From the NCBI RefSeq assembly GCF_018524365.1, contig NZ_JAEKFT010000027.1, positions 1 to 63,922 on the forward strand: a DNA stretch of 63,922 nt, read 5' to 3'. The position numbers and the translations under genes are program-made. Each line of letters begins with the position of its first letter. The first letter of the stretch is position 1. Under the pieces are notes generated by a model that made no database searches, had not been told where the DNA came from, and saw only the letters and a list, made by a program, of their open reading frames with translations. Below are positions 7,267-30,598 of this stretch, piece by piece. The stretch comes from Denitromonas iodatirespirans (GTDB lineage Bacteria; Pseudomonadota; Gammaproteobacteria; Burkholderiales; Rhodocyclaceae).

Positions 7267-7277
7267 GCGTTCAGTCC

Positions 7278-8318: not shown

Positions 8319-8455
8319 TGGGGTTCTCCTTGCGCGTGGTGATTGCTTCGATGCGCGAATTCTGATTAACTGGATAAATCGTTTATTGCCGATTGTTCCA
8401 TAAAAAACAATTAACTAGCCGAGTGGCTGCAGATTTTTCTTGCGGCGCAACATCC

Positions 8456-8866
8456 ATGACTGCCGAACGTACCTACACCATCACCGAACTGGCGCGCGAG
8501 TTCGACATCACGCCACGCGCCATCCGTTTTTACGAAGACCAGGGCCTGCTCACGCCCGACCGCGCCGGCCGCACCCGGGTCTATTCGCGCGCCGATCGCA
8601 CCCGCCTCAAGCTGTCGCTGCGTGGCAAGCGCCTCGGCCTGACGCTGGCCGAGATCAAGGAAATCCTCGACATGTACGGCGGCGCCAGCAACACCGCGCC
8701 CCAGCTCGACCGCTTTCTCAAGGTGCTCGGCGAGCGCCGCGCCGCGCTGGCCCAGCAGCTCGAGGATATCGAAGTGGTGCTGGGAGAAATCGACATGCTC
8801 GAGCGCCAGTGCCGCGATCTGCTCGACCACCGGACGTCGGACGAATCCAAGAACCAGGGCACATAG
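8456..8866 (+). CDS. liuR: MerR-family regulator of leucine/isovalerate catabolism (LiuR type)
   Basis: The 136-residue protein has a MerR winged helix (YTITELAREFDITPRAIRFY, EDQGLLTP) and a C-terminal coiled coil (QLEDIEVVLGEIDMLERQCR). It lacks the Cys metal ligands of metal-sensing MerR proteins. It heads the leucine degradation cluster, immediately before a 22-bp palindrome. That is the arrangement known for LiuR in other Proteobacteria. The start at 8456 is the first Met before the DNA-binding domain; an upstream extension from 8393 lacks homology. The effector is probably a CoA intermediate of the pathway (inference). Confidence 0.85.
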   Translation: MTAERTYTITELAREFDITPRAIRFYEDQGLLTPDRAGRTRVYSRADRTRLKLSLRGKRLGLTLAEIKEILDMYGGASNTAPQLDRFLKVLGERRAALAQQLEDIEVVLGEIDMLERQCRDLLDHRTSDESKNQGT

Positions 8867-8890
8867 GTCTTGGTTTTTTTTGCAATTTAC

Positions 8891-8912
8891 TTTACGTTTA
8901 CGTAAACGTAAA
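8891..8912. promoter_or_regulatory. Perfect 22-bp palindrome, candidate LiuR operator
   Basis: The half site TTTACGTTTAC is followed by its exact reverse complement GTAAACGTAAA with no spacer. It lies in the 67-bp gap between liuR and the thioesterase, 22 bp before that gene's start at 8934. A weak -35-like TTTACT (8886) and a -10-like TAAATA (8909) flank it with a 17-bp spacer, the layout typical of MerR activators. No other copy was noticed in the window. Confidence 0.75.
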
Positions 8913-8933
8913 TACAAGCCCAGCGAGGACGCC

Positions 8934-9392
8934 ATGAACGCCGGCCAACACTTCACCCCGCGAGACCCCGATTTCGCCGTGCGCGTGCGCGCCGGTTTCG
9001 ACGCACAGCCGATGATGGCCTTCATCGGCGCGACGCTGAGCTCGGTCGAGGCGGGGCGCTGCGTCATCGAGCTGCCGTTCCGGCCCGAGCTGGCGCAGCA
9101 GAACGGCTTCTTCCACGGCGGCATCGTCGGCACGCTGGCCGACAACGCCGGCGGCTTTGCCGGCTACACCCTGATGGCGGCCGACGCCGGGGTGCTGACG
9201 GTGGAGTACAAGTTGAACCTGATGGCCCCGGCGCAGGGCGAACGGCTGATTGCCGAAGGGCAGGTGCTGCGCGCCGGGCGCTCGCTGGTGGTGTCGCGCG
9301 CCGAGGTGTATGTCCTTGGCCCGGCAGGGAAAATTCACTGTGCCACAATGCAACAGACACTGATGACCATGCACGGCAAGGGCGTCGCCTGA
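8934..9392 (+). CDS. PaaI-family hotdog thioesterase
   Basis: The 152-residue protein has a hotdog fold with the PaaI-like motif [18 protein letters not shown] and the strand [11 protein letters not shown]. Such proteins hydrolyse acyl-CoA or aryl-CoA thioesters and may prevent CoA trapping during catabolism. Start at 8934 follows GAGG. It is the first structural gene after the candidate LiuR palindrome and lies 31 bp before isovaleryl-CoA dehydrogenase, so it is probably co-transcribed with liuA. The exact thioester is unknown. Confidence 0.85.
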
Positions 9393-9423
9393 ACCGGACG
9401 AGACTGAACGAGGAGACCGATTG

Positions 9424-10596
9424 ATGAACATTCCGAGCCTGAACTTCGACCTGGGCGAAACCATCGACATGCTGCGCGATGCAGTGTGGGACTTCGCCAG
9501 CAACGAGATCGCTCCGCGCGCCGCCGAGATCGACCAGAAGAACGAATTCCCCGCCGACCTGTGGAAGAAGCTGGGCGACCTCGGTCTGCATGGCATGACA
9601 GTCGAGGAGGAGTACGGTGGCACGCAGATGGGCTATCTGGCGCACATCGTGGCGCTCGAGGAAGTCTCGCGCGCCTCGGCCTCTGTCGGCCTGTCCTATG
9701 GCGCCCACTCCAATCTGTGCGTGAACCAGATCCGCCGCAACGGCAATGCTGCACAGAAGCAGAAGTACCTGCCCAAGCTGGTCTCCGGCGAGCACGTGGG
9801 CGCCCTGGCGATGAGCGAGCCGAACGCCGGCTCTGACGTGGTGAGCATGAAGCTGCGCGCCGAGAAGAAGGGTGACCGCTATGTGCTCAACGGCTCGAAG
9901 ATGTGGATCACCAACGGTGGCGATGCCGACACGCTGGTGGTGTACGCCAAGACCGACATCAACGCCGGCCCCAAGGGCATGACCGCCTTCATCATCGAGA
10001 AGGGCATGAAGGGCTTCTCCTGCGGCACGCACCTGGACAAGCTGGGCATGCGCGGCTCGAACACCTATCCGCTGTTCTTCGATGATGTCGAAGTGCCCGA
10101 AGAGAACGTGCTGGGCACGGTCGGTGGCGGCGTCAAGGTGTTGATGAGCGGTCTCGACTACGAGCGTGCCGTGCTGTGCGGCGGCCCGCTGGGCATCATG
10201 GCTGCGTGCATGGATGCGGTCGTCCCGTTCGTGCATGAGCGCAAGCAGTTCGGCCAGGCCATCGGCGAGTTCCAGCTGATGCAGGGCAAGCTCGCCGACA
10301 TGTACTCCACCTGGATGGCGACCCGCGCCTATGTGTATGCCGTGGGCCGCGCCTGCGACCGCGCCGACCATGCGCGCACGCTGCGCAAGGACGCCGCCGG
10401 CGCGATCCTCTACTCGGCCGAGAAGGCCACCTGGATGGCCGGTGAGGCGATCCAGGCCTTGGGTGGCGTCGGCTACACCAACGAGTACCCGGTCGGCCGT
10501 CTGTGGCGTGATGCCAAGCTGTACGAGATCGGTGCCGGCACCAGCGAGATCCGCCGCATGCTGATCGGTCGCGAACTGTTCGCCGAATCGATGTGA
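9424..10596 (+). CDS. liuA: Isovaleryl-CoA dehydrogenase
   Basis: This 390-residue flavoprotein oxidises isovaleryl-CoA to 3-methylcrotonyl-CoA, the first committed step of leucine catabolism after transamination and decarboxylation. It has acyl-CoA dehydrogenase motifs ([28 protein letters not shown]). The helix motif [16 protein letters not shown] places the catalytic Glu at the position used by isovaleryl-CoA dehydrogenases. The C-terminal region reads [12 protein letters not shown] rather than YEG, which separates it from short-chain enzymes. GAGGAG precedes ATG 9424; an in-frame TTG sits just before it. Confidence 0.95.
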
Positions 10597-10675
10597 AGGC
10601 CGGTGGGCGGGTGACCGAACGTTCGCGCGCGAGCCCCCGCCCTCCGGTATCGTTCCGGATTGTCTTCAATCCTGT

Positions 10676-11827
10676 ATGAGCATCTTCATGGCAACCACAC
10701 TTCGCGTCCTCGACACCACCCACACCGCCGAACTGGAGCATGTGCGCCAGTTCTTTCGCAATTACGCGGCCTGGCTGGGGGTGGACCTGTGCTTCCAGAA
10801 CTTCGATGCCGAGATGGCCGCGCTGCCGGGCGCCTATTCGGCGCCGGGCGGCCGGCTGTTTCTGGCCGAGGTCGATGGCCAGCCGGCCGGTTGTGTGGGG
10901 ATCCGCAAGTTCTCCGACGGCGTGTGCGAGATGAAGCGGCTGTACGTCGAGCCGTCGATGCGGGGCCTGGGCGTGGGGCGCGATCTGGCGCTGGCGGCGA
11001 TCCGCACCGCCAAGGAGTTGGGCTACAAGCGCATCATGCTCGACACCCTGCCGGCCATGCGCATTGCCGTGAAGCTCTATCGCGAGCTGGGTTTCACCGA
11101 AGCGCCGGCCTATTACCCGACGCCGATCGAAGGCACCATCTTCCTCTCGCTCGATCTGTCGGACTGGTCCGAAGACGCGGTCAAGAACGAGAATCTCTTC
11201 CACCTGTTCGACTACAACCGCGCCTGGGCGCGGCAGATGAGCGAGGTCGATCCGCAGTTCTTCGAAAAGCTGGCGCATCTGCAGGCGCCCGAGTACCTGT
11301 GGATCGGCTGCGCCGACTCGCGCGTGCCGGCCAACCAGATCGTCGGCCTGCTGCCGGGCGAGGTGTTTGTCCATCGCAATGTGGCCAACGTGGTGGTGCA
11401 TACCGATCTCAACTGCCTGTCGGTGATCCAGTTCGCGGTCGACGTGCTCAAGGTCAAGCATGTCATGGTGGTCGGTCACTATGGCTGCGGCGGCGTGCGC
11501 GCTGCGCTCAACCGCGACCGTGTCGGTCTGGTCGACCTGTGGCTGCGCCATGTGCAGGACGTGCACACCAAGCACATGTCGCGGGTTGGCGAACTGCCGC
11601 CCGAGATGCGCCATGACCGCCTGTGCGAGCTCAATGTCATCGAGCAAGTCATCAACGTGTGCCAGACCGTGGTCGTCCAGGACGCCTGGGCGCGCGGCCA
11701 GAAATTGACCGTCCATGGCTGGGTGTATGGCCTCAAGGACGGCCTCATGAACGACCTCGGGCTGACGGTCAGTCGCTCGCAGGACCTGGTGCCGCGCTAC
11801 GCCGCGGCCCTTGAAGCGCTGCGCTGA
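10676..11827 (+). CDS. GNAT acetyltransferase-beta carbonic anhydrase fusion
   Basis: The 383-residue protein joins two domains. Residues ~10-160 are a GNAT N-acetyltransferase with the acetyl-CoA loop MRGLGVGRDLA (95-105). Residues ~170-383 are a beta-class carbonic anhydrase. Its zinc-site residues are Cys212-Ala-Asp214-Ser-Arg216, His268 and Cys271 (GHYGCGG). The second domain interconverts CO2 and bicarbonate; the acetyl acceptor of the first is unknown. It lies inside the leucine cluster, which encodes a bicarbonate-using carboxylase. Two in-frame ATGs (10676, 10688) are possible starts. Related fusions occur in other Betaproteobacteria, to my knowledge without assigned function. Confidence 0.9.
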   Translation: MSIFMATTLRVLDTTHTAELEHVRQFFRNYAAWLGVDLCFQNFDAEMAALPGAYSAPGGRLFLAEVDGQPAGCVGIRKFSDGVCEMKRLYVEPSMRGLGVGRDLALAAIRTAKELGYKRIMLDTLPAMRIAVKLYRELGFTEAPAYYPTPIEGTIFLSLDLSDWSEDAVKNENLFHLFDYNRAWARQMSEVDPQFFEKLAHLQAPEYLWIGCADSRVPANQIVGLLPGEVFVHRNVANVVVHTDLNCLSVIQFAVDVLKVKHVMVVGHYGCGGVRAALNRDRVGLVDLWLRHVQDVHTKHMSRVGELPPEMRHDRLCELNVIEQVINVCQTVVVQDAWARGQKLTVHGWVYGLKDGLMNDLGLTVSRSQDLVPRYAAALEALR

Positions 11828-11867
11828 GCGGCGCGCCCCGACATCTACAGAGCATCAGGAGTCCAGC

Positions 11868-13058
11868 ATGAATGATCCCGTCGTTATCGTTTCCGCCGCC
11901 CGCACGCCGATGGGCGGCTTCCAGGGCGAGCTGTCCAGTCTGAGCGCGGCGCAATTGGGGGCGGCCGCGATTGCCGCGGCCGTCGAGCGCGCCGGGCTCA
12001 AGCCGGAACAGGTCGAAGAGGTCATTCTCGGCTGCGTGCTGCCGGCCGGCCTCGGCCAGGCCCCGGCGCGTCAGGCGGCGCTGGGCGCCGGTCTGCCGAT
12101 GTCGACCACCTGCGCCACCGTCAGCAAGGTGTGCGGCTCGGGCATGAAGGCCACCATGCTGGCCCACGACATGCTGCTCGCCGGCTCCAACCAGGTAATC
12201 GTCGCCGGGGGCATGGAGTCGATGAGCAACGCGCCCTACCTGCTGCCCAAGGCGCGCGGCGGCTATCGCCTCGGCCATGGCCAGCTGATCGACCACATGT
12301 TCTTCGACGGCCTCGAAGACCGCTACGGCAAGGAGACCAACGGCCGCCTGATGGGCACCTTCGCCGAAGACTGCGCCGGGCACTACAGCTTCTCGCGCCA
12401 GGCCCAGGACGAATTCGCCATCGCCTCCACCACCCGCGCGCAGGACGCCATCAACGGCACCGGTTTCGACTGGGAGGTGACCCCCGTCACCGTCGCCAGC
12501 CGCAAGGGCGAGGTGGTGGTCGACAAGGACGAGCAGCCGCTCAAGGCCAATCTCGACAAGATCGGCACGCTCAAGCCGGCCTTCTCGAAAGACGGCACCG
12601 TCACCGCCGCCAACTCCTCGTCGATCTCCGACGGCGCCGCCGCGCTCACGCTGATGCGCCGCTCCACCGCCGAAGCCCTCGGCCTCAAGCCGATCGCCAC
12701 GATTCTCGGCCATGCCACCCATGCGCAGGAGCCGCGCTGGTTCACCACCGCGCCGGTCGGTGCCATGCAGAAGGTGCTGGGCAAGGTGGGCTGGAACGTC
12801 GGCGACGTGGATCTGTGGGAGATCAACGAGGCCTTCGCCGTGGTCACCATGGCGGCCATGAAAGAGCTAGAACTCGATCACGCCAAGGTCAACGTCAACG
12901 GCGGCGCCTGCGCGCTGGGCCACCCGATCGGCGCCTCGGGCGCGCGCATCCTCGTCACCCTGCTCGGCGCGCTGCGCGCCCGCGGCCTCAAGCGCGGCGT
13001 GGCCAGCCTGTGCATCGGCGGCGGCGAAGCCACCGCGATGGCCATCGAGATGGTCTGA
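11868..13058 (+). CDS. Acetyl-CoA C-acetyltransferase (thiolase)
   Basis: This 396-residue thiolase has the acyl-enzyme Cys in [10 protein letters not shown], the His motif [11 protein letters not shown], and the general-base Cys in LCIGGGEA. It interconverts acetoacetyl-CoA and two acetyl-CoA. In leucine catabolism, HMG-CoA lyase yields acetoacetate, so a thiolase would finish the route after CoA activation. No acetoacetate activation gene is visible in the window. CAGGAG precedes ATG 11868. The longer frame from 11811 overlaps the upstream gene and is not needed. Confidence 0.93.
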
Positions 13059-13071
13059 AGATCACCCACGT

Positions 13072-13159
13072 GTAGCCCGGACGAAGCCGCAGGCTGACTC
13101 CGGGAGCGGTGGCACATGAACCGATGACCCCGGATTCCGCTGCGCTGCATCCGGGCTAC
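13072..13159. repeat. REP-like dispersed palindromic element, copy 1
   Basis: The element begins GTAGCCCGG and ends CCGGGCTAC, a perfect 9-bp terminal inverted repeat. The interior is GC-rich and contains CCGGATTCCGCTGCGCTGCA. It lies between the thiolase and acyl-CoA dehydrogenase genes. Related copies are at 26957-27073 and, partially, 20505-20535. Confidence 0.75.
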
Positions 13160-13226
13160 GTGACAGAACCAAGGACGGGCGACCGATCGCCCGCCATAAA
13201 GAAAAGAGCAAGAGGAGAACAGCACC

Positions 13227-14360
13227 ATGATCCTGACCCAGGAACAGGAAATGATCCGCGACTCGCTGCGCGCCTTCGCGCAGGAGCGCCTGGCGCCGTT
13301 TGCCGAGGAATGGGACCGCAAGCACACCTTCCCGCGCGAAGCGCTCAAGGAGCTGGCCGAGCTTGGCGCGCTGGGCATGGTGGTGCCCGAGCAATGGGGC
13401 GGCGCCGGCATGGACTACATGAGCCTGGTGCTGGCGCTCGAAGAGATCGCCGCCGGCGACGGCGCCACCTCGACCATCGTCAGCGTGCAGAACTCGCTGG
13501 CCTGCGGCATTCCCAACCGCTACGGCAACGATGCGCAGAAGGAGAAATGGCTCAAGCCGCTGGCCAGCGGCCAGATGCTCGGCTGCTTCTGCCTCACCGA
13601 GCCGCATGTCGGCTCCGACGCCGGGGCGATCAAGACCACGGCCGTGAAAGACGGCGACGAATGGGTGATCAACGGCGTCAAGCAGTTCATCACCACCGGC
13701 CGCGAGGCCGACGTGGCCATCGTGTTCGCCGTCACCGACAAGGCCGCCGGCAAGAAGGGCATCTCCTGCTTCCTGGTGCCGACCCAGACGCCGGGCTACA
13801 TCGTCGCGCGCATCGAAGAGAAGATGGGCCAGAAGGCCTCCGACACCGCGCAGATCCTGTTCGAGAACTGCCGCGTGCCGGCCGACGCGCTGCTCGGCGA
13901 AGAAGGGCAGGGCTACAAGATCGCGCTGTCCAACCTCGAAGCGGGCCGCATCGGCATCGCCTCGCAGTGCCTCGGGATGGCGCGCGCCGCGCTCGAAGCG
14001 GCGGTGAAATACGCCCATGAACGCGAGACCTTCGGCAAACCGATCTTCGAGCACCAGGCGGTCAACTTCCGCCTCGCCGACATGGCCACGCAGCTCGAAG
14101 CGGCGCGCCAGCTGGTGTGGCATGCCGCCAGTCTCAAGGACGCCGGTCGGCCCTGCCTCAAGGAGGCCTCGATGGCCAAGCTGTTCGCCTCCGAGATGGC
14201 CGAGAAGGTGTGCTCCGACGCGATCCAGATCCACGGCGGCTACGGCTATGTGACCGACTTCCCGGTCGAGCGCATCTACCGCGACGTGCGCGTGTGCCAG
14301 ATCTACGAAGGCGCCAGCGACATCCAGCGCCTGGTCATCGGCCGCGCGCTGGCCGACTGA
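13227..14360 (+). CDS. Acyl-CoA dehydrogenase (short/branched-chain type)
   Basis: The 377-residue flavoprotein has the family motifs [16 protein letters not shown] and [18 protein letters not shown]. The C-terminal [15 protein letters not shown] supplies the catalytic Glu in the YEG position of short- and medium-chain enzymes. It is therefore distinct from LiuA and probably acts on a short or branched acyl-CoA such as butyryl- or 2-methylbutyryl-CoA. GAGGAG precedes ATG 13227. A 168-bp gap holding a REP-like element separates it from the thiolase. Confidence 0.92.
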
Positions 14361-14389
14361 ATCTTGGTCCCCAACTCAGAGAGCACACC

Positions 14390-14827
14390 ATGAGCAGCTA
14401 CAGACTGCACCCCGACGCGTCCATCGACAGGCTCAACGCCCGCACGCCCGGCACGCTGCCGGGCTGGTTCGGCCTGGCCGTGACCGCGCTCGAACCCGGC
14501 CGGCTCACCGCAGGCATGAGCATTCGCCCCGAGATGCTGGCACCCAACGGCTATCTGCATGCCGCTTCGGTGATCGCCCTGGCCGATACCGCGGCCGGTT
14601 TCGCCACCATCGCGCACCTGCCCGAAGGCGCGAGCAGCTTCACCACCATCGAGCTCAAGAGCAATTTTCTCGGCACCCAGACCGAAGGCGAGATCAGCTG
14701 CACCGCCACCGCCGTGCACACCGGCCGCAACACGCAGGTGTGGGACGCCGAGGTGATCGGCAGCACCGGTCGCAAGCTGGCGCTGTTCCGCTGCACGCAG
14801 ATGATCCTCTGGCCGAAGGCGGCCTGA
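14390..14827 (+). CDS. Hotdog-fold thioesterase (PaaI/YbdB-like)
   Basis: The 145-residue protein is a second hotdog thioesterase, divergent from that at 8934. Conserved parts are MLAPNGYLHAASVIALADTA and the central strand FTTIELKSNFLGT. It probably hydrolyses CoA thioesters, possibly aromatic or branched ones. It starts 29 bp after the acyl-CoA dehydrogenase and is followed closely by a LysE-type exporter, so it belongs to the same transcript. Two thioesterases in one catabolic region suggest a need to release trapped CoA. Confidence 0.85.
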   Translation: MSSYRLHPDASIDRLNARTPGTLPGWFGLAVTALEPGRLTAGMSIRPEMLAPNGYLHAASVIALADTAAGFATIAHLPEGASSFTTIELKSNFLGTQTEGEISCTATAVHTGRNTQVWDAEVIGSTGRKLALFRCTQMILWPKAA

Positions 14828-14843
14828 GCCCGGGACGGCCGAC

Positions 14844-15470
14844 ATGCTCGACACCCAGCTCCTGCTCCTGTTCATTCCGGTGGCCGCGCTGTTCACCCTC
14901 GCGCCGGGGCCGGACAGCCTCATGCTGCTCGGCCGCGCCCTCGGGCAGGGGCGGTTGGCTGGGGTGGCTGCGGCCGCCGGCTGTGCGCTGGGTATCCTGA
15001 TCACCTCGGTGCTGGTCGCCGCCGGGTTGTCGGCGGTGGTGGCCGCTTCCGAAACCCTGTTCTTCGTGCTGCGCGCCGTCGGTGCGGTGTATCTGGTGTG
15101 GGTCGGCATTCAGGCGATTCGCCGGCACGGGCTGATCCCGCTCAAGGGCGCCGCGCCGCTGCCGCTCAAGCGGGTGTTCCTGAGCAGCCTAACGGTCAAT
15201 CTGCTCAACCCCAAGGTGGCGGTGTTCATGCTCGCCTTCCTGCCGCAATACGCGCGGCCGGCGCTGGGCCATCTCGGCTTGCAGATCTTTTTGCTCGGCG
15301 CCACCTATGCGCTCATCACCCTGGTGCTGATGTCGCTGATGGGCGCCGGTGCCGCGCGCCTGCGCGACTTCCTGCAGGCGCGGCCGGCGGTGATCAAGTG
15401 GCTCAACATCGGGGCCGGCAGTGCCTTCATCGCCTCCGGGCTGAAGGTGGCCAGCATGAAGCATCCCTAG
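14844..15470 (+). CDS. LysE-family amino acid/metabolite exporter
   Basis: The 208-residue inner-membrane protein has about six hydrophobic segments. It has the LysE/RhtB N-terminal signature LFTLAPGPDSLMLLGRALGQ and the motif VNLLNPKVAVFMLAFLPQ. Family members export amino acids or related small molecules. Placement among leucine genes suggests overflow export of a branched-chain amino acid or derivative, which is inference. It begins 16 bp after the thioesterase stop. Confidence 0.88.
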   Translation: MLDTQLLLLFIPVAALFTLAPGPDSLMLLGRALGQGRLAGVAAAAGCALGILITSVLVAAGLSAVVAASETLFFVLRAVGAVYLVWVGIQAIRRHGLIPLKGAAPLPLKRVFLSSLTVNLLNPKVAVFMLAFLPQYARPALGHLGLQIFLLGATYALITLVLMSLMGAGAARLRDFLQARPAVIKWLNIGAGSAFIASGLKVASMKHP

Positions 15471-15480
15471 GAGACCGCAC

Positions 15481-16083
15481 ATGGCAGAGCCCATCGATTT
15501 CTACTTCGACTTCTCCTCGCCCTATGGCTATTTCATGAGCGAGAAGATCGACGGCATCGCCGCCGGCGTCGGCCGCAAGGTGCGCTGGCATCCGATCCTG
15601 CTCGGCGTGGTGTATGCCGTCTCGGAAGGCAAGCCGCTCACCGACGTGCCGCTCAAGGGCGACTACGCGGTGCGCGACATCGCGCGCTCGGCACGCTTTC
15701 ATGGCGTGGATTTCGCCATGCCCAGCCCGTTCCCGGTCGCCACCCAGGCGGCGGCCCGCGCCTTCTACTGGCTGCATGAGCAGGACTGCACGCTGGCGCG
15801 CCGCTTCGCCCATGCCGTGTATCGCGCCTACTTCAAGCTGGGGCGCGATATCTCTTCGCCCGAAGTGGTGGTCGATATCGCCGAATCGCTCGGGGCGGAC
15901 GGTGCCGCGCTGGCCGCTGCGCTGAAGAGCGATCCGCTCAAGGCGCGGCTCAAGGCCGCCTGCAACGAGGCCATTGCCAAGGGGGTGTTCGGCTCGCCCT
16001 TCGTGATCATCGACGGCGAGCCCTTCTGGGGCGTCGACCGCCTGCCGCAGATCGAGCGCTGGCTCGATGGCGGCGCTTTTTGA
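15481..16083 (+). CDS. 2-hydroxychromene-2-carboxylate isomerase-like DsbA-family protein (copy 1)
   Basis: The 200-residue thioredoxin-fold protein begins with IDFYFDFSSPYGYFMSEKID and ends with GVFGSPFVIIDGEPFWGVDR, the pattern of kappa-GST-like 2-hydroxychromene-2-carboxylate isomerases. The Cys-X-X-Cys of DsbA is replaced by Ser-Ser-Pro-Tyr, as in this family. The known activity is glutathione-dependent isomerisation in naphthalene degradation, but no other naphthalene gene is present, so the substrate here is unknown. AGGAG lies before the start. A paralogue is at 25386. Confidence 0.88.
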   Translation: MAEPIDFYFDFSSPYGYFMSEKIDGIAAGVGRKVRWHPILLGVVYAVSEGKPLTDVPLKGDYAVRDIARSARFHGVDFAMPSPFPVATQAAARAFYWLHEQDCTLARRFAHAVYRAYFKLGRDISSPEVVVDIAESLGADGAALAAALKSDPLKARLKAACNEAIAKGVFGSPFVIIDGEPFWGVDRLPQIERWLDGGAF

Positions 16084-16096
16084 ACGGAACCGATCC

Positions 16097-16687
<591 letters not shown>

Positions 16688-16718
16688 ACAGCTGCACCAA
16701 CGACAAGGACGAGGAGAC

Positions 16719-18326
<1,608 letters not shown>

Positions 18327-18337
18327 GAGAGATGACC

Positions 18338-19126
18338 ATGTTTGAGACCCTCGACATTGAACGTGACGGCGGCATTGCCACCGTCTGGATGAACCGGCCG
18401 GACGTGCACAACGCCTTCAACGCCCAGCTGATCGCCGACCTCACCGCCGCCTGCGTCCAGCTCGACGCCGACGAATCGGTGCGCGTGGTGGTGCTGGCCG
18501 GGCGCGGCAAGAGCTTCTCGGCCGGTGCCGATCTGAACTGGATGAAGGCCGCCGGCGAGGCCAGTGTGGACGAGAATCTGGCCGACGCGCGCCGGCTCGC
18601 CGGCATGCTGCGCACGCTGTCCGAGATGGACACGCCGACCATCGCCCGCGTGCAGGGCGCGGCCCTGGGCGGCGGCATGGGCCTGGCCTCGGCCTGCGAC
18701 ATCTGCGTGGCCAGCGAAAAGGCCATCTTCGCCACCTCGGAAGTCAAGTTCGGCATCATCCCCTCGGCCATCAGCCCCTATGTGATCCGCGCCATCGGCG
18801 AGCGCCAGAGCTACCGCTATTTCCAGACCGCCGAGCGCATCAGCGCTGCGCGCGCCGGCGAGCTGGGCCTGGCCCACGAAGTGGTGGCGCCCGAGGCGCT
18901 GGACGACAAGGTGGCCGAGATCGTCGCCGCGCTGCTGCAGGGCGGGCCCAAGGCGCAGGCGGCGGCCAAGGCCCTGATCCGTGCCGTGGCCAACCAGCCG
19001 GTGTCCGACGCCGTGGTCGAGGACACCTCACGCCGTATCGCCACGCTGCGCAGCACGCCGGAAGCCAAGGAAGGCCTGAGCGCTTTCCTTGACAAGCGCC
19101 CGGCGGCCTGGGTGCCGCAGGCCTGA
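18338..19126 (+). CDS. liuC: Methylglutaconyl-CoA hydratase (enoyl-CoA hydratase family)
   Basis: The 262-residue crotonase-fold enzyme has GRGKSFSAGADLNWMK and VQGAALGGGMGLASACDICV (oxyanion-hole Gly residues) and a family Glu in SEVKFGIIPS. Placed directly after liuB, it should hydrate 3-methylglutaconyl-CoA to HMG-CoA. ATG 18338 is preferred over ATG 18332 because the purine run AAGAGAG sits at a better distance. Only 11 bp separate it from liuB, so the two are surely co-transcribed. Confidence 0.92.
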   Translation: MFETLDIERDGGIATVWMNRPDVHNAFNAQLIADLTAACVQLDADESVRVVVLAGRGKSFSAGADLNWMKAAGEASVDENLADARRLAGMLRTLSEMDTPTIARVQGAALGGGMGLASACDICVASEKAIFATSEVKFGIIPSAISPYVIRAIGERQSYRYFQTAERISAARAGELGLAHEVVAPEALDDKVAEIVAALLQGGPKAQAAAKALIRAVANQPVSDAVVEDTSRRIATLRSTPEAKEGLSAFLDKRPAAWVPQA

Positions 19127-19142
19127 GCGGCCGTTGCCGGTC

Positions 19143-19799
19143 ATGAACGAACTGCCCGTCCTGCTCGACAGAGTGCAGCCCCTGCTCGACTGGCGCGACC
19201 TGCCGGTCGACATGGCCTCGCTCGCCGCCCTGGCGGCCGGCCTGGGCTGGGCCAGCGGCTTGCGGCTGTATGCGCTGGTGTTCGTGCTCGGTGTGGTAGG
19301 GCGTTTCGGCGGGGTGCAACTGCCCGGCGAACTCGACATGCTGACCCATCCGCTGGTGCTCGGGCTGGCGGGCCTGATGCTGCTCGCCGAGTTCTTTGCC
19401 GACAAGCTGCCCTGGCTCGATTCGGTGTGGGATGCGGTGCATACCTTCATCCGCATTCCGGCCGGCGCCGCGCTGGCGGCGGCGGTGATGGGCGACCAGT
19501 CGGGCAATGCGCAGATCCTCGCCGCCCTGCTCGGCGGTTCGCTGGCGGCCGGCACGCACTTTGCCAAGGCCGGCGCCCGCGCGGCGATCAACACCTCGCC
19601 GGAGCCGGTGAGCAATGTCGTCACCTCGCTCGGCGAAGACGCGCTGTTCGTCGGCGGGGTGTGGACGCTCTTCAACCATCCGGTGCTCTTCCTGGTGGCG
19701 CTGGGCGTGTTCATGGCACTGGCGCTGTGGCTGGTGGTGAGCCTGTGGCGCTTCGTGCGGCGCCGGCTGCGCCCGCGGCAGCACGAGGTGGCCGCATGA
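19143..19799 (+). CDS. DUF4126 membrane protein
   Basis: The 218-residue protein has several hydrophobic segments (LAALAAGLGWASGLRLYALV, LFLVALGVFMALALWLVVSL) and a basic C-terminus FVRRRLRPR. It matches the DUF4126 family of inner-membrane proteins with the conserved central patch INTSPEPVSNVVTSLGEDAL. No function is known for the family. It overlaps the next gene by 4 bp (ATGA), indicating translational coupling within the liu transcript. Confidence 0.82.
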   Translation: MNELPVLLDRVQPLLDWRDLPVDMASLAALAAGLGWASGLRLYALVFVLGVVGRFGGVQLPGELDMLTHPLVLGLAGLMLLAEFFADKLPWLDSVWDAVHTFIRIPAGAALAAAVMGDQSGNAQILAALLGGSLAAGTHFAKAGARAAINTSPEPVSNVVTSLGEDALFVGGVWTLFNHPVLFLVALGVFMALALWLVVSLWRFVRRRLRPRQHEVAA

Positions 19800-20440
19800 G
19801 GGCCATCGATCATCTGGTCGTCACCGCCCCGAGTCTCGCCGCCGGCGTGGCCTGGGTCGAAGCGACGCTGGGCGTGCCGATGCAGGCCGGTGGCGAGCAT
19901 GTGCGCATGGGCACCCACAACGCCCTGTTGTCACTCGGCCCCGGCGTGTACCTGGAAGTGATCGCGGTAAATCCGGCCGCGCCGCCCCCGGCGCACCCGC
20001 GCTGGTTCGGACTCGATGCGCTGGCCCCCGATGCCGCTCCGCGGCTGGCCACCTGGGTGCTGCGCACGGACGACATCGCGGCCGATGTGGCGGCCTTCGC
20101 CATCTCGCCGGGGGCGGTGATGCCCATGGCGCGCGGCGATTTCCGGTGGCAGATCTCGGTGCCCGCCGACGGCCGGCTGGTGGCCGACGGCGTGCAGCCA
20201 ACGCTGATCCAGTGGGCCGACGCGCGTCATCCGGCCGACTCCCTGGCCGACGTCGGTTGCCGCCTGCTGCGGTTGGTCTGCGCACATCCGCAGGCCGGCG
20301 CCCTGCAGGCGCCACTGGCCCGGCTCGGGCTGGATGCCTGCCTCGAATGGCAGACGCTCATGCCGGGGCAGACCCCGTGCTTGAGCGCCGAACTCGATAC
20401 CCCGGCCGGGCGGGTGACGCTCGGCGGAACAGAACAATGA
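19796..20440 (+). CDS. VOC/glyoxalase-like domain protein
   Basis: The 214-residue protein starts MRAIDHLVVTAPSLAAGVAW, the opening of a glyoxalase-like (VOC) domain, with the metal-site-like segments MGTHNALLSLGPGVYLEVIA and DTPAGRVTLGG. VOC proteins are isomerases, epimerases or dioxygenases on small acyl or aldehyde substrates. The substrate here is not predictable. The ATGA overlap with the DUF4126 gene indicates coupling. It ends 21 bp before the leader ORF of liuD. Confidence 0.82.
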   Translation: MRAIDHLVVTAPSLAAGVAWVEATLGVPMQAGGEHVRMGTHNALLSLGPGVYLEVIAVNPAAPPPAHPRWFGLDALAPDAAPRLATWVLRTDDIAADVAAFAISPGAVMPMARGDFRWQISVPADGRLVADGVQPTLIQWADARHPADSLADVGCRLLRLVCAHPQAGALQAPLARLGLDACLEWQTLMPGQTPCLSAELDTPAGRVTLGGTEQ

Positions 20441-20461
20441 CAGAAACGGTGGAGAAGACAC

Positions 20462-20602
20462 ATGTTTGAAAAAATCCTGATCGCGAACCGCGGTGACCAG
20501 CCGCGTAGCCCGGCCGAGCGCAGCGACGCCGGGGCCGCCATGGCACAGCAGAGCCAAGGGTGTGTTTGCGTCGATTTCACCGCGGAGGTGCACCATGTTT
20601 GA
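20462..20602 (+). CDS. 46-codon leader ORF made from a duplicated liuD 5' end
   Basis: It has its own Shine-Dalgarno (GGAGAAG, 20451) and starts [12 protein letters not shown]. The first 11 residues are identical to LiuD, but the DNA differs from liuD at synonymous third positions (GAA/GAG, AAA/AAG, ATC/ATT, CTG/CTT, GCG/GCC). It then diverges through a REP-like stretch and stops at TGA 20600, inside the first codons of the real liuD (overlap ATGTTTGA). It may be a remnant of a disrupted start or a functional coupler for liuD translation. Expression is not proven. Confidence 0.6.
   Translation: MFEKILIANRGDQPRSPAERSDAGAAMAQQSQGCVCVDFTAEVHHV
20505..20535. repeat. Partial REP-like element inside the liuD leader
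   Basis: GTAGCCCGG at 20505 followed by CGAGCGCAGCG and a CCGGGG block resembles the left half of the elements at 13072 and 26957. It lies directly after the duplicated start of liuD and is probably part of the inserted segment that separates the two copies. Confidence 0.5.
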
Positions 20603-22595
20603 GAAGATTCTTATCGCCAACCGCGGTGAAATCGCCTGCCGCGTCATCAAGACCGCGCGACGCATGGGCATCAAGACCGTGGCGGTGTATTCCGAGGCCG
20701 ACGCCAACGCGCGTCATGTACGCCTGGCCGACGAGGCGGTGCTGATCGGCCCGGCCGCGGTCAAGGAAAGCTACCTGGTGATCGACAAGATCATCGCCGC
20801 CGCCAAGCAGACCGGCGCGCAGGCGATCCACCCGGGCTACGGCTTCCTGTCGGAGAACGAAGACTTCTGCCATGCCTGCGACGAGGCCGGCATCGTCTTC
20901 ATCGGCCCGCCGGTGTCGGCGATCCAGGCCATGGGCTCCAAGTCCGAAGCCAAGAAGATCATGGGCGCGGCCGGCGTGCCGCTCACCCCGGGCTACCACG
21001 GCGACGACCAGGACCCGGAGCTCCTCAAGCGCGAGGCCGACGGCATCGGCTACCCGGTGCTGATCAAGGCCGCCGCCGGCGGTGGCGGCAAGGGCATGCG
21101 CCTGGTGGAGAAGGCCGAGGACTTCCTCGATCTGCTCGGCTCGTGCAAGCGCGAGGCCATCTCCAGCTTCGGCGACGACCATGTGCTGATCGAGAAATAC
21201 ATCACCCGCCCGCGCCACATCGAGATCCAGGTGTTCGGCGACACCCAGGGCAACTGCGTGTACCTGTTCGAGCGCGATTGCTCGGTGCAGCGCCGCCACC
21301 AGAAGGTGCTCGAAGAGGCGCCCGCGCCGGGCATGACGCCCGAGCGCCGCGCCGCCATGGGCCAGGCGGCGGTCGACGCGGCCAAGGCGGTCGGCTATGT
21401 CGGCGCCGGCACGGTGGAGTTCATCGCCAACCAGGACGGCAGCTTCTATTTCATGGAGATGAACACCCGCCTGCAGGTCGAGCACCCGGTCACCGAGATG
21501 ATCACCGGCCTCGACCTGGTCGAGTGGCAGCTGCGTGTCGCTTCGGGCGAGCCGCTGCCGCTGGCGCAGGAGCAGTTGCAGATCCGCGGCCATGCGCTCG
21601 AAGCGCGCATCTATGCCGAAGACCCGGACAAGGGCTTTTTGCCCTCCACCGGCGCGCTGCTCCACCTGTCGCCGCCGGCCGAGAACCTGCATGTGCGGGT
21701 CGACACCGGCGTCGAAGAGGGCGACGAGATCAGCCCGCACTACGATCCGATGATCGCCAAGCTCATCGTCTGGGACCACAGCCGCGAGCGCGCCCTGGCG
21801 CGCATGCTGCAGGCGCTGGCCGAGTACCGCGTGGTCGGCGTATCGAACAACATCAGCTTCCTGTCGCGCCTGACCGCCTGCCCGGCCTTTGCCAACGCCG
21901 ACCTCGACACCGGCCTGATCGAGCGCGAAAAGGCCTACCTCTTCCCCGAAGCCAAGGCCACGCCGGCCGAGGTCTGGTACGTGGCTGCGTTGGCCGAACT
22001 GCTGCGCGAGGCCAACCGCGGCGCGGCCAAAGCCCGCCGTGACGAAGACCCGCTCTCGCCCTGGCATGCCCGCGACGGCTGGCGCCTGAACGCCTCGGCC
22101 AAGCGCGACCTGATCTTCCGCCTTGGCGAAGACCAGAAAACCGTGAATGTGGCCTACCGTGCCGACGGCTACACGCTGACGGTCGACGGCAAGTCGGTCG
22201 AGGCGCGCGGTGAGCTGAACGACCGCGGCCTGCTGCGCGTCGAGCTCGACGGCATGCGCATGGACGCCACCGTGGTGGCCGCCAACGAGAAGCGCCATGT
22301 GTTCTTCCACGGTCGTGCCTGGCAGCTGTCCAATGTCGACCCGCTGCACTTCGCCGGCGAGGGCGGTGGCGCCGAAGGCGGCCTGCTGGCGCCGATGCCG
22401 GGCAAGGTGATCGCGCTCATCGCCCAGGCCGGCGCCGCGGTCGACAAGGGCGCGCCGCTGTTGATTCTCGAAGCGATGAAGATGGAACACACCATCGCCG
22501 CCCCCGCCGCCGGCACGGTCAAGGCCTTCCGCTTCGCGGTCGGCGACCAGGTGGGCGATGGTGATGAGCTGGTTGAGTTCGAGGTGAAGGCATGA
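20595..22595 (+). CDS. liuD: 3-methylcrotonyl-CoA carboxylase, biotin (alpha) subunit
   Basis: The 666-residue protein has a biotin carboxylase domain ([23 protein letters not shown]-grasp glycine loop [36 protein letters not shown]) and a C-terminal biotin domain with the lysine motif EAMKMEHT. It carboxylates biotin with ATP and bicarbonate for LiuB. GGAGG lies 7 nt before ATG 20595, which is the true start; a diverged copy of the first codons lies 133 bp upstream. It overlaps liuE by 4 bp. Confidence 0.95.
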
Positions 22596-23506
22596 ATCTT
22601 CCGACACAGGTCCGCATCGTCGACGTCGGTCCGCGCGACGGGCTGCAGAACGAAAAGCAGGTGATCGACACGGCGGTCAAGGTCGAGCTGATCGCCCGGC
22701 TCGGTGCGGCCGGGTTGAAGAGCATCGAGGCGACCTCCTTCGTGTCGCCCAAGTGGGTGCCGCAGATGGGTGACAACGCCGAAGTCATGGCAAGCATCCA
22801 GCGCCTGCCCGGCGTGGGGTATCCGGTGCTGACGCCGAACCTGAAAGGCTTCGAGGCGGCGCTGGCTGCCGGCGCCGAGGAGGTGGCGGTGTTCGGTGCG
22901 GCCTCCGAGTCCTTCAGTCAGAAGAACATCAACTGTTCGATCGCCGAATCGCTGCAACGCTTCGAACCGGTGATGGCGGCGGCCCAGGCGGCCGGCGTGA
23001 AGGTGCGCGGCTATGTGTCCTGCGTGCTCGGCTGTCCTTACGAGGGCGAGATCGCCCCGGCCGCGGTGGCCGAGGTGGCCGCCACGCTGTTCGACATGGG
23101 CTGCTACGAGGTCAGCCTCGGCGACACCATCGGCACCGGCACGCCGGGCAAGACGCAGCGCATGCTCGACGCCGTAGCGGCGCGGGTGCCGGTGGGTAAA
23201 CTGGCCGGCCACTATCACGACACCTACGGCCAGGCGCTGGCCAATATCTACGCGTCGCTGGAGAGGGGCGTGGCGGTGTTCGACGCCTCGGTCGGCGGGC
23301 TGGGCGGTTGCCCCTACGCGGCCGGTGCCTCGGGCAATGTGGCGACCGAGGATGTGGTCTACCTGCTCGACGGGCTGGGCATCGACACCGGCATCGACCT
23401 GAACCGTCTGGTCGACACCGCAGCATGGATCAGCGCCCAACTGGGCCGCGAGCCGGCCTCGAAAGTGGCGCGCGCGGTGCTGGCCAAGCGGGGCGCCTGC
23501 GTATGA
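22592..23506 (+). CDS. liuE: Hydroxymethylglutaryl-CoA lyase
   Basis: The 304-residue TIM-barrel enzyme cleaves HMG-CoA to acetyl-CoA and acetoacetate, the last step of leucine degradation. Hallmarks are [14 protein letters not shown] near the N-terminus, the His-containing metal site [12 protein letters not shown], and the catalytic Cys loop [16 protein letters not shown]. It overlaps liuD by ATGA and the next small gene by ATGA, so all three are coupled. Confidence 0.96.
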
Positions 23507-23715
23507 GCGTGGCGTCGCCGTGCATCGACATCTGTAAAATGGACCCCCGCACCGGTCTGTGCGTGGGTTGTGCCCGCACGATCGACGAGATCACCGCCTG
23601 GAGTCGCATCGGCGACGACGAGAAGCGGGCGATCCTGGCGCGGGTGGCCGAGCGCGAAGCGGCGCTCGATGTGTTCGACCACGATCCGCAGGCGAGCGGC
23701 GGGCGCACGTCCTAA
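23503..23715 (+). CDS. DUF1289 small Cys-rich protein (copy 1)
   Basis: The 70-residue protein begins [20 protein letters not shown] with CxxxC...CxxC spacing (CIDIC, CVGC) typical of DUF1289. The Cys set suggests metal or iron-sulfur binding, but the role is unknown. It overlaps the liuE stop by 4 bp and so is translated with the liu operon. A second DUF1289 gene is at 25159. It is followed by a 147-bp gap before sbtA. Confidence 0.85.
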
Positions 23716-23862
23716 CTGGGGTGTTTCGCCAGGCGGGGGGAGGAGGGCGCACCGCCCGCCGCGCCGGAACCTTTTGCGCCGACGGCCGTCAGTTTGTCGG
23801 GCCGTGCGGCCGGTGGGGTCGCGGCCCGGGGGCGCGTTGCCCCGATTTGTCTGTGAGCGACG

Positions 23863-24813
23863 ATGAATCCGATCGATCCGATCATCCTGTTTTTCCTGCT
23901 CGGCCTCATCGCGGGCCTGGCGCGCGCCGAGCTGCGGCTGCCGGCGGCCATCTATGATTTCGTCAGCATCCTGCTGCTGCTCGCCATCGGCCTGAAGGGC
24001 GGCATCGAGCTGGCCAAGCAGCCCTTTGGCGATCTGCTGCCGCAAATCCTCGCCGTGCTGGCGATGGGCTTCGCGCTGCCGTTGGTGGCCTATCCGGTGC
24101 TGCGCCACCTCGGGCGCTTCCAGCGCGCCGATGCGGCCTCGATCGCCGCCCACTACGGCTCGGTCAGCGTCGGCACCTACGCGGTGGCGGTGGCCTACTT
24201 CGGCACCCGCGAGATCTTCTTCGAAGCCCACATGCCGCTCCTGCTGGTGGTGCTCGAAGTGCCGGCCATCCTGGTCGGCATCGTGCTGGCGCGCGGCATG
24301 AGCCGCGAGACGCGCTGGGGCGCGGTGATGCACGAAGTGTTTCTCGGCAAGGGCATCGTGCTGTTGCTCGGCGGCCTGCTCATCGGCTGGATCGCCGGGC
24401 CCGAGGGCGTGGTGTCGATCAAGCCGCTGTTCTTCGACCTGTTCAAGGGCATCCTGGCCATCTTCCTGCTCGAAATGGGCCTGATCACCGCGGCGCAGAT
24501 CGGGTCCTTGCGCCAGTACGGCCTGTTCCTGCTCAGTTTCGGCATGCTCATGCCGGTGGGCTCGGCACTGATCGGCGCGCTGCTCGGCTGGGCGCTGGGG
24601 CTGTCGATGGGCGGCACGGCGGTGCTCGCCACGCTGGCGGCCTCGGCTTCGTACATCGCGGTGCCGGCGGCCATGCGGGTGTCGGTGCCCGAGGCCAACC
24701 CGACGCTGTCGCTCACCGCCTCGCTGGGCATCACCTTTCCGTTCAATGTGCTGATCGGCGTGCCGCTTTATCATGCGATGGCCGAGCGTGTGCACGCCTT
24801 CCTGGGAGCCTGA
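23863..24813 (+). CDS. sbtA: SbtA-type sodium-dependent bicarbonate transporter
   Basis: The 316-residue protein has about ten hydrophobic segments and matches SbtA: DFVSILLLLAIGLKGGIELA near the N-terminus, AAHYGSVSVGTYAVAVAYF, and NPTLSLTASLGITFPFNVLI near the end. In cyanobacteria SbtA imports bicarbonate with sodium and is gated by SbtB. The gene lies 147 bp after the liu operon genes and 3 bp before an sbtB-like gene. A role in supplying methylcrotonyl-CoA carboxylase with bicarbonate is a contextual inference. Confidence 0.88.
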   Translation: MNPIDPIILFFLLGLIAGLARAELRLPAAIYDFVSILLLLAIGLKGGIELAKQPFGDLLPQILAVLAMGFALPLVAYPVLRHLGRFQRADAASIAAHYGSVSVGTYAVAVAYFGTREIFFEAHMPLLLVVLEVPAILVGIVLARGMSRETRWGAVMHEVFLGKGIVLLLGGLLIGWIAGPEGVVSIKPLFFDLFKGILAIFLLEMGLITAAQIGSLRQYGLFLLSFGMLMPVGSALIGALLGWALGLSMGGTAVLATLAASASYIAVPAAMRVSVPEANPTLSLTASLGITFPFNVLIGVPLYHAMAERVHAFLGA

Positions 24814-24816
24814 GCC

Positions 24817-25128
24817 ATGAGCCTGGCCAACGACCGTATCCGCAAGCTGCTGACCATCGTCACCGAAGGGGCGATCGAGAGCGCGCTGGTGCGCGACCTC
24901 GACCGGCTCGGCGCGCATGGCTACACCATCACCGAGGCGCGTGGCAAAGGGCGTCGCGGGGTGCGCAACGCCGGCTGGGATGCGAGCAGCAACATCCGCA
25001 TCGAGGTGGTGTGCAACGACGACACCGCGGCCGCCATCGCCGCCCACCTGCAGGCGCAGTACTACGACAACTACGCGATGATCCTGTGGGCGAGCGAGGT
25101 CGAGGTGCTGCGGCCCGAAAAATTCTGA
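24817..25128 (+). CDS. sbtB: SbtB-like PII signalling protein
   Basis: The 103-residue ferredoxin-like PII protein has a short T-loop region with GKGRRGVRNAG and the C-terminal strand YYDNYAMILWASEVEVL, which closely resembles SbtB. Cyanobacterial SbtB binds cAMP, AMP or ADP and controls SbtA. This protein ends at LRPEKF and lacks the Cys-pair C-terminal R-loop of cyanobacterial SbtB, so redox-linked nucleotide hydrolysis is not expected. It starts 3 bp after sbtA. Confidence 0.85.
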   Translation: MSLANDRIRKLLTIVTEGAIESALVRDLDRLGAHGYTITEARGKGRRGVRNAGWDASSNIRIEVVCNDDTAAAIAAHLQAQYYDNYAMILWASEVEVLRPEKF

Positions 25129-25158
25129 GCCCGCGCGGCTCGCCAGCCAGGAGCGCCC

Positions 25159-25341
25159 ATGTCCGAATGCATCGGCATTTGCGAGATCGACCCCGATTCC
25201 GAAACCTGTATCGGCTGCGGCCGTTCGGCCGACGAGATCTTCGGCAACGACCACAGCGACGACCCGACAGACGCCGACGTCCAGCCGCCGCCGGCCGATC
25301 ATGTGCCGATCACGCCGGACGATGCGCAGCCCGTCGACTGA
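25159..25341 (+). CDS. DUF1289 small Cys-rich protein (copy 2)
   Basis: The 60-residue protein starts MSECIGICEIDPDSETCIGC and keeps the CxxxC...CxxC pattern of DUF1289. Its tail is acidic and Pro-rich (DDPTDADVQPPPADH). It lies 30 bp after sbtB, and AGGAG precedes the ATG. The function is unknown. Two copies in one cluster, one behind liuE and one behind sbtB, suggest recurring linkage of this family with these genes. Confidence 0.8.
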   Translation: MSECIGICEIDPDSETCIGCGRSADEIFGNDHSDDPTDADVQPPPADHVPITPDDAQPVD

Positions 25342-25385
25342 CGAATCCGCTTCGTGACGCCGCCGCGCCCCCCGAGGAGACCCCC

Positions 25386-28605: not shown

Positions 28606-28607
28606 GT

Positions 28608-29297: not shown

Positions 29298-29381
29298 GGA
29301 TGCGTCTCCTCCAGCGTGGCGCGCGCAGGCCGCACCGCGCCGGGCAGGCCGGGCGGTGCGGTGCTTCGGGTCGGAACGGAT

Positions 29382-30518: not shown

Positions 30519-30569
30519 AGGGGTCTCCTCCGGATCAGTCACAAGGGGGACGGACCGGCGGCCCGCCCT

Positions 30570-30598
30570 GCGGCGTCGTCCCGGCGGGGCGACGCCGC
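30570..30598. other. Strong GC hairpin in dctP upstream region
   Basis: GCGGCGTCG pairs perfectly with CGACGCCGC (9 bp) around an 11-nt loop, 52 nt before the dctP GTG start. It could be part of a structured leader or a terminator remnant from the upstream gene. There is no U-tract on the dctP side. Confidence 0.4.

What the first reader, a model, noticed from the sequence alone, without database searches (positions are those of the whole stretch)
10676..25128. Bicarbonate supply genes embedded in the leucine degradation cluster
A GNAT-carbonic anhydrase fusion and an SbtA-SbtB bicarbonate uptake pair flank liuB/liuD, whose biotin carboxylase consumes bicarbonate. SbtAB is best known from cyanobacterial CO2 concentration. 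Here it may feed methylcrotonyl-CoA carboxylase or anaplerotic carboxylases during growth on leucine. The GNAT part could add acetyl-CoA-linked feedback.
Basis: partly seen in the sequence, partly recalled or inferred. Interest (0 to 1): 0.7.

Follow-up and report, generated by a model that had tools for sequence, protein, structure and literature searches.

The report
Carbonic anhydrase inside leucine-degradation operon
A bacterium's leucine-breakdown gene cluster carries its own enzyme for turning carbon dioxide into bicarbonate, which one step of that pathway consumes; this pairing recurs in many related bacteria, whereas the bicarbonate-pump genes beside it were found there only in a few close relatives.

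Summary
In detail: a leucine/isovalerate (liu) cluster with a GNAT–beta-carbonic-anhydrase (CA) fusion between isovaleryl-CoA dehydrogenase and thiolase, and sbtA-sbtB after HMG-CoA lyase.

The two halves behave differently. In 111 Rhodocyclaceae genomes the fusion occurs in 30: within 20 kb of liuB in 15, beside other liu genes or liuR in 9 more, beside only accessory genes on short contigs in 2, alone in 4. An unfused CA holds the same or a neighbouring place in liu clusters of six families of the order; outside the order, 0 of 16 genomes with both genes are linked. A promoter-like element stands before liuR in 10 of 10 genomes tested, 0.8-2.8 kb upstream of the fusion. SbtAB beside liu was found in 4 of 8 close relatives, and in 0 of 26 other family genomes having both.

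Best reading: the CA rehydrates CO2 to bicarbonate for methylcrotonyl-CoA carboxylase; SbtAB is a lineage-specific accessory that does not track RuBisCO. The GNAT motifs are intact, but GNAT and CA are separable, which weakens acetyl-CoA feedback. Main rival: the fusion is simply the housekeeping CA. No expression or growth data were available.

The parts
8343..8371 (+). Promoter-like element TTGC-N13-WTCTGMTTAACT before the MerR regulator (probable LiuR control region; inferred)
   Evidence: Exact match; one site with at most 1 mismatch in each of 9 of 10 genomes searched (G100 has a second, 1-mismatch site with no liuR match), each main site before a liuR homologue; reversed-pattern control 0
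8456..8866 (+). MerR-family regulator, probable LiuR
   Evidence: PF13411/PF09278; start set
8880..9392 (+). 4HBT-type thioesterase
   Evidence: PF03061
9421..10596 (+). Acyl-CoA dehydrogenase, probable isovaleryl-CoA dehydrogenase (liuA)
   Evidence: PF02771/PF02770/PF00441; IVD assignment from recalled sequence features
10676..11827 (+). GNAT acetyltransferase-beta carbonic anhydrase fusion, 383 aa
   Evidence: key residues invariant in 37 distinct fusions
11868..13058 (+). Acetyl-CoA C-acetyltransferase (thiolase)
   Evidence: PF00108/PF02803; NCBIfam NF005404 above cut-off
13227..14360 (+). Second acyl-CoA dehydrogenase
14844..15470 (+). LysE-type exporter
   Evidence: PF01810
15481..16083 (+). 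DsbA-like (2-hydroxychromene isomerase-like) protein
   Evidence: PF01323
16067..16687 (+). LOG/'lysine decarboxylase' family protein
   Evidence: PF03641
16719..18326 (+). liuB, methylcrotonyl-CoA carboxylase carboxyltransferase subunit
   Evidence: PF01039; start inferred from homologues
18338..19126 (+). liuC, enoyl-CoA hydratase family (methylglutaconyl-CoA hydratase)
   Evidence: PF00378
20595..22595 (+). liuD, methylcrotonyl-CoA carboxylase biotin subunit (bicarbonate user)
   Evidence: PF00289, PF02786, PF02785, PF21139, PF00364
22592..23506 (+). liuE, hydroxymethylglutaryl-CoA lyase
   Evidence: PF00682; NF004283 above cut-off
23503..23715 (+). DUF1289 protein, overlaps the liuE stop codon
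   Evidence: PF06945 E 1.7e-21
23863..24813 (+). sbtA, PF05982 transporter, predicted Na+/bicarbonate symporter
   Evidence: matches Slr1512 structures
24817..25128 (+). sbtB, PII-like regulator
   Evidence: PF00543; SbtB structures among PDB matches
25159..25341 (+). Second DUF1289 protein
   Evidence: PF06945 E 2.7e-9

Best explanation
The window holds a LiuR-type leucine/isovalerate degradation cluster that encodes its own cytosolic type-II beta-carbonic anhydrase. Leucine degradation releases one CO2 at the branched-chain keto-acid dehydrogenase and takes up one bicarbonate at methylcrotonyl-CoA carboxylase (established biochemistry). The CA most likely closes that gap by converting the released or ambient CO2 to bicarbonate, and is made together with the pathway because it sits in the same gene string. 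In Rhodocyclaceae this CA is fused to a GNAT acetyltransferase with intact acetyl-CoA-binding and tyrosine motifs; its substrate is unknown and it probably has a separate job in or near the pathway. SbtA-SbtB is a later, lineage-limited insert between two DUF1289 genes downstream of liuE in the window's closest relatives; it may add bicarbonate uptake but is not part of the conserved core. Shown: gene content, conserved order, intact residues, distribution. Inferred: co-transcription, catalysis, physiological purpose.
For: Same-strand, mostly short spacing from liuR to thiolase (13, 28, 79, 40 bp). Fusion in 30 of 111 Rhodocyclaceae; 15 of the 25 that also have liuB within 20 kb, against 4 of 44 for unfused CA; 9 more fusion genomes have it beside liuR, IVD, thiolase, acd, liuC or liuE. 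Unfused CA between IVD and thiolase, or directly before thiolase or liuB, in families f1, f11, f31, f38, f48, f49. In all 10 genomes tested the liuR-side element stands 0.8-2.8 kb upstream of the fusion (distances worked out); in G044 and G100, where liuB lies elsewhere, the fusion is the first gene after liuR that my queries recognise. Zn ligands, Asp/Arg dyad and W/R/Y triad invariant in 37 of 37 fusions. In 8 of 30 fusion genomes there is also an unfused Can-type CA; 6 of those 8 keep the fusion with liu genes. Parallel: Arabidopsis mitochondrial beta-CA6 and human CA V feeding MCC (PMC13103436, abstract and passages).
Against: 22 of 30 fusion genomes show no second Can-type CA (4 of them have a weaker beta-CA match), so the fusion may be the general CA. 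In 10 of 25 genomes with fusion and liuB the two are not within 20 kb on one contig, and 4 fusion genomes show no liu gene within an 18-kb stretch (G017, G024, G028, G061). 40 of 44 genomes with unfused CA and liuB are not linked, and 0 of 16 outside the order, so leucine degradation does not need a linked CA. Ralstonia eutropha can mutants fail on substrates other than leucine (PMC3904209). Slot CAs do not form one clade (10 changes, poorly resolved), so the arrangement may have arisen more than once or been overwritten. No expression data.
Confidence: 0.5

Rival explanations
1. Housekeeping CA: the fusion is the cell's general CA (the Can role: bicarbonate for all carboxylases). It happens to be transcribed with, or merely lies among, leucine genes, and its purpose is not specific to leucine.
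For: Only Can-type CA in 22 of 30 fusion genomes. The closest solved relatives are general bacterial beta-CAs. In R. eutropha deletion of can impairs growth on fructose and other non-leucine substrates, restored by CO2 on fructose (PMC3904209, sections 15 and 19); whether that gene (H16_A0169) also lies in a liu cluster is my recollection only, and that paper does not contain the word leucine.
Against: Fusion far more often near liuB than unfused CA (15/25 against 4/44); retained with liu genes in 6 of 8 genomes that also have an unfused Can-type CA; recurrent same-slot position in several families.
Confidence: 0.35
2. SbtAB is an independent uptake module that landed next to liuE by chance and has no leucine-specific role.
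For: Adjacent to liuE only in 4 of 8 close relatives; sbtA not within 20 kb of liuB in 26 of 26 other family genomes and 31 of 31 other order genomes that have both (3 of those 31, G169, G189 and G289, at 20-30 kb). Elsewhere it has its own neighbours, a LysR gene in 4 sampled loci (L072, L076, L081, L085). 147-bp gap before sbtA and no liuR-type element there.
Against: Kept in register next to liuE with divergence like liuE's (sbtA 97/93/94% against liuE 95/91/92% in G111/G112/G115), as for an old resident; 30-bp gap from sbtB to the next gene; the tree needs 3 changes, compatible with one gain and two losses. Many assemblies are fragmented, so linkage can be missed.
Confidence: 0.6
3. SbtAB here is part of an autotrophic CO2-concentrating mechanism serving RuBisCO.
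For: G000 and G111 carry a full RuBisCO large-subunit match; SbtAB is best known from cyanobacterial CO2 concentration.
Against: SbtAB without RuBisCO in G112 and G115, RuBisCO without SbtAB in G110, G114 and G060. RuBisCO is on another contig in G000 (C2). G115 is a 3.1-Mb MAG, so its absence is weak evidence.
Confidence: 0.1
4. The GNAT domain is an acetyl-CoA sensor or lysine acetyltransferase that adjusts CA or the leucine enzymes to the pathway's end product.
For: R/Q-x-x-G-x-G motif and Tyr135 kept in 37 of 37 fusions (36 R, 1 Q); a homologous GNAT lies between liuD and liuE in G010; fused GNATs form one side of a branch (support 90).
Against: CA works in the slot without GNAT elsewhere. 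Standalone homologues are otherwise not near liuB: 1 of 6 in the family, 0 of 16 in the order. Closest solved GNATs are only weakly similar and do not tell a substrate.
Confidence: 0.15

Closest known systems
Mitochondrial CA supplying methylcrotonyl-CoA carboxylase (Arabidopsis beta-CA6; human CA VA/VB; PMC13103436, abstract and passages)
   Same: A CA placed with leucine degradation to provide bicarbonate for MCC; beta-class in the plant
   Different: There the link is by organelle, here by gene cluster; no GNAT fusion or transporter is mentioned in what I saw
Can of Ralstonia eutropha H16 (PMC3904209: abstract, passages, sections 15 and 19)
   Same: Cytosolic beta-CA needed in air; its family shows the CA-thiolase arrangement if G276 and G238 are kin (unnamed, not tested)
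   Different: Not fused to GNAT as described; the paper does not mention leucine
Type-II beta-CA of E. coli (YadF/Can, 1i6o)
   Same: Full-domain similarity (E 5.1e-82)
   Different: The window protein carries an extra N-terminal GNAT domain of about 165 residues
SbtA-SbtB of Synechocystis (Slr1512/Slr1513; 7cye, 7cyf)
   Same: Family, gene pair, both substrate-site serines S322 and S324 aligned to serine
   Different: Two of four docked bicarbonate contacts changed; no C-terminal CGPxGC motif in SbtB; no RuBisCO association
Shewanella SO_3758 SbtA-like transporter (PMC12093963, passages)
   Same: Heterotroph SbtA with a Ser-Ala-Ser core like the window's
   Different: No leucine link is mentioned in the passages seen

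Membership tests
Leucine/isovalerate (liu) cluster | MCC subunits, hydratase, HMG-CoA lyase, acyl-CoA dehydrogenase, MerR regulator together | tested here: met
Liu cluster | Induction by leucine or isovalerate | not testable with these tools
   No expression data
Beta carbonic anhydrase, type II | Zn ligands C212, D214, H268, C271 and R216 | tested here: met
   37 of 37 fusions; roles of the residues recalled
Beta carbonic anhydrase, type II | Bicarbonate-regulatory triad W209, R234, Y351 | tested here: met
   37 of 37; triad recalled from H. influenzae/E. coli work
Beta carbonic anhydrase, type II | CO2 hydration activity | not testable with these tools
   -
GNAT acetyltransferase | Acetyl-CoA loop R/Q-x-x-G-x-G and conserved Tyr | tested here: met
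   R96 36, Q 1; G99, G101, Y135 37 of 37; motif recalled
GNAT acetyltransferase | Identified acetyl acceptor | not testable with these tools
   Only weak PDB matches, best E 1.5e-6; structure prediction failed
SbtA | PF05982 fold family | tested here: met
   383 bits against cut-off 27
SbtA | Bicarbonate contacts S114, Y140, S324, S327 (docking in PMC8352866, passages seen) | tested here: inconclusive
   Aligned residues S102, L128, S263, A266: 2 of 4 kept (my reading)
SbtB | PII-like protein encoded beside sbtA | tested here: met
   3-bp gap
SbtB | C-terminal CGPxGC hairpin (present in some homologues) | tested here: not met
   Protein ends ...VLRPEKF
Cyanobacterial-type CO2-concentrating mechanism | SbtAB together with RuBisCO | tested here: not met
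   Of 8 close relatives, RuBisCO in 2 of 4 with SbtAB and 3 of 4 without

The most novel reading that the evidence does not exclude
A leucine-operon inorganic-carbon module: the CA recycles pathway CO2 to bicarbonate for MCC on the spot, and the fused GNAT couples this to acetyl-CoA, the pathway's end product, by acetylating CA or liu enzymes; in one lineage SbtAB completes it with regulated bicarbonate import.
Probability: 0.12. Interest if true: 0.75.

Novelty: new variant of a known kind. Interest (0 to 1): 0.5.

Why it matters
If the CA serves MCC, bacteria have solved by gene clustering what mitochondria solve by compartment: keeping bicarbonate up with a carboxylase inside a catabolic route. 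That would make CO2 dependence of amino-acid catabolism directly testable in cultured Thauera, Denitromonas or Aromatoleum-type strains. It would also give a first functional handle on a GNAT-CA fusion for which I found no paper (searches; open-licence library only).

Tried and rejected
SbtAB as a RuBisCO helper: rejected as the main reading because presence does not follow RuBisCO in 8 close relatives. SbtAB under its own liuR-type site: no match to TCTGMTTAACT (1 mismatch allowed) in the window except at 8361-8371; no sigma-70-like site by the simple scan in 22400-26200. CA slot as one ancient vertical trait: the quick tree does not put the slot CAs in one clade, but most deep forks are unresolved, so this is open. 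GNAT tree to place the G010 GNAT: long branches, not resolved. Literature: no paper on a CA in a bacterial leucine cluster or on a GNAT-CA fusion in the searches; subscription papers (for example the LiuR regulon study that I recall) are not held, so this is weak; the three LiuR papers listed were not opened. Alpha- and gamma-class CAs in the window's genome were not searched.

Rows dropped before counting: liuB-query matches of 56% identity or less (other carboxylases), so 72 of the 75 genomes were kept; split fragments of one sbtA, five partial matches (class P), loci L001 and L042 (copies of the window), identical rows and rows under 170 or 110 aa. The order and class samples were drawn by the tool (200 and 229 genomes) and reuse a few genomes.


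Full report
What is there. The window is a whole contig (C123) of an unnamed 5.2-Mb genome. Its nearest named relatives are an unclassified MAG (L002) and Denitromonas strains (L003, L004), at 93-98% identity in the fusion protein. From 8456 to 23715 runs a co-directional cluster: MerR regulator, 4HBT thioesterase, acyl-CoA dehydrogenase (probable IVD), GNAT-CA fusion, thiolase, second acyl-CoA dehydrogenase, LysE, DsbA-like, LOG, liuB, liuC, DUF4126, glyoxalase-like, liuD, liuE, DUF1289. Gaps from liuR to thiolase are 13, 28, 79 and 40 bp; the largest gap is 483 bp, before LysE. sbtA and sbtB follow, 147 bp after the DUF1289 gene, with a second DUF1289 gene 30 bp after sbtB.

The fusion. Thirty-seven distinct fusion proteins were aligned. 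The CA metal ligands, the Asp/Arg dyad and the W/R/Y triad that I recall as the bicarbonate-regulatory site of type-II beta-CAs are invariant in 37 of 37. The GNAT acetyl-CoA loop (R96 in 36, Q in 1; G99, G101) and Y135 are kept as well. Both domains therefore look active; neither activity was tested. The CA half matches E. coli and other general beta-CAs in the PDB; the GNAT half has only weak PDB matches.

Distribution of CA with liu genes. In 111 Rhodocyclaceae genomes (GTDB family) the fusion is found in 30; 25 of these have liuB, 15 within 20 kb. Unfused Can-type CA is found in 73; 44 have liuB, 4 within 20 kb (Fisher p = 1e-5). Reading the stretches around the other 15 fusions: 9 lie with liuR, IVD, thiolase, acd, liuC or liuE (G009, G018, G044, G045, G049, G079, G094, G100, G103); 2 only with DsbA/LOG genes on short contigs (G089, G104); 4 with none in 18 kb (G017, G024, G028, G061). 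G024 additionally has an unfused CA beside IVD (L153). In a 200-genome order sample, 69 genomes have CA, 93 have liuB, 52 both, 12 within 20 kb. Among the order loci read, IVD-CA-thiolase order is seen in f11, f38 and f49; f31 has the same order with a longer IVD-CA gap (L119) or liuR-CA-thiolase (L130); f48 shows CA-thiolase with the upstream side at a contig end (L126). In f1, L112 and L113 show IVD-CA-thiolase, L087 IVD-CA-liuB, L091 CA-thiolase-liuB. The only fusion matches in the order sample are in the window's own family (G000, G062). In the class sample, outside the order, 54 genomes have CA, 61 liuB, 16 both and 0 within 20 kb.

Control region. A promoter-like element in front of liuR (TTGC-N13-WTCTGMTTAACT, written from an alignment of upstream regions) was searched in 10 genomes with up to 1 mismatch. 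Each has it once, except G100 with a second 1-mismatch site; the reversed-pattern control gave 0. All 10 main sites precede a liuR homologue; the extra one does not. From the coordinates each main site lies 0.8-2.8 kb upstream of the fusion on the same strand. That this is the LiuR operator is inference.

Evolution. In a quick CA tree the fusion CAs form one group (SH-aLRT 97) that also holds the unfused CA of G071, so GNAT was probably lost there. The slot CAs of other families do not group together, on a poorly resolved tree. In G010 a separate GNAT (45% identical) lies between liuD and liuE, and that genome's CA is elsewhere. Standalone GNAT homologues are otherwise not linked: 1 of 6 in the family, 0 of 16 in the order. 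GNAT and CA are thus separable parts.

SbtAB. In the family sample sbtA is in 34 genomes, 27 with liuB, and within 20 kb only in the window; in the order sample 52, 32 and again only the window, with G169, G189 and G289 at 20-30 kb. Among 8 close relatives, SbtAB sits next to liuE in G000, G111, G112 and G115; no sbtA was found in G110 (the same genome as G113), G114, G060 or G116. In G110 and G060 the site is empty: liuE, two DUF1289 genes, MBL; the site was not read in G114 and G116. On a tree of eight liu proteins the pattern needs 3 changes, for example one gain and two losses; sbtA diverges about as much as liuE. RuBisCO is present in 2 of 4 relatives with SbtAB and 3 of 4 without. The transporter keeps the Ser-x-Ser core in 53 of 53 loci compared (some from the same genome) but 2 of the 4 docked bicarbonate contacts of Synechocystis SbtA are changed (with passages of PMC8352866), so the substrate is a prediction. 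CA next to SbtA occurs elsewhere in G004, G232 and L021.

Mechanism and rivals. The simplest account is a CA made with the leucine pathway to match the bicarbonate use of MCC, as argued for mitochondrial CAs (PMC13103436, abstract and passages). The strongest rival is the housekeeping role: 22 of 30 fusion genomes show no other Can-type CA, and R. eutropha can mutants are sick on non-leucine substrates (PMC3904209, sections 15 and 19). Both can be true at once; the growth test on leucine against acetate would separate them.

Verdict. Ordinary genes in a conserved and apparently little-noticed arrangement.

Noticed in passing
L002 about 9261-9760 (genome G111): An additional, different GNAT-like ORF lies between IVD and the fusion gene in the closest relative (frame read); it explains the longer IVD-fusion gap there.
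   Followed up: no
23503-23715 and 25159-25341: Two small DUF1289 (Cys-rich) genes bracket sbtAB; they adjoin each other in the relatives without sbtAB (G110, G060).
   Followed up: partly
25386-26027: A second DsbA-like gene overlaps the MBL gene start; seen in the window and G111 but not in G110, G112, G115 or G060.
   Followed up: partly
5443-8318: PhaC-type polymerase and a metallo-beta-lactamase-fold gene diverge from liuR; the same neighbours recur in many liu clusters of the family.
   Followed up: no
L076 (genome G004): sbtA and a weak beta-CA (43%) lie 43 bp apart, with a LysR gene nearby: a stand-alone inorganic-carbon module.
   Followed up: no
L128 (genome G190): A standalone GNAT (50%) and a CA (69%) lie about 7 kb apart with no liu gene match in the stretch.
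   Followed up: no
27082-30968: TRAP transporter genes (DctM, DctQ, DctP) beyond the MBL gene on the opposite strand.
   Followed up: no
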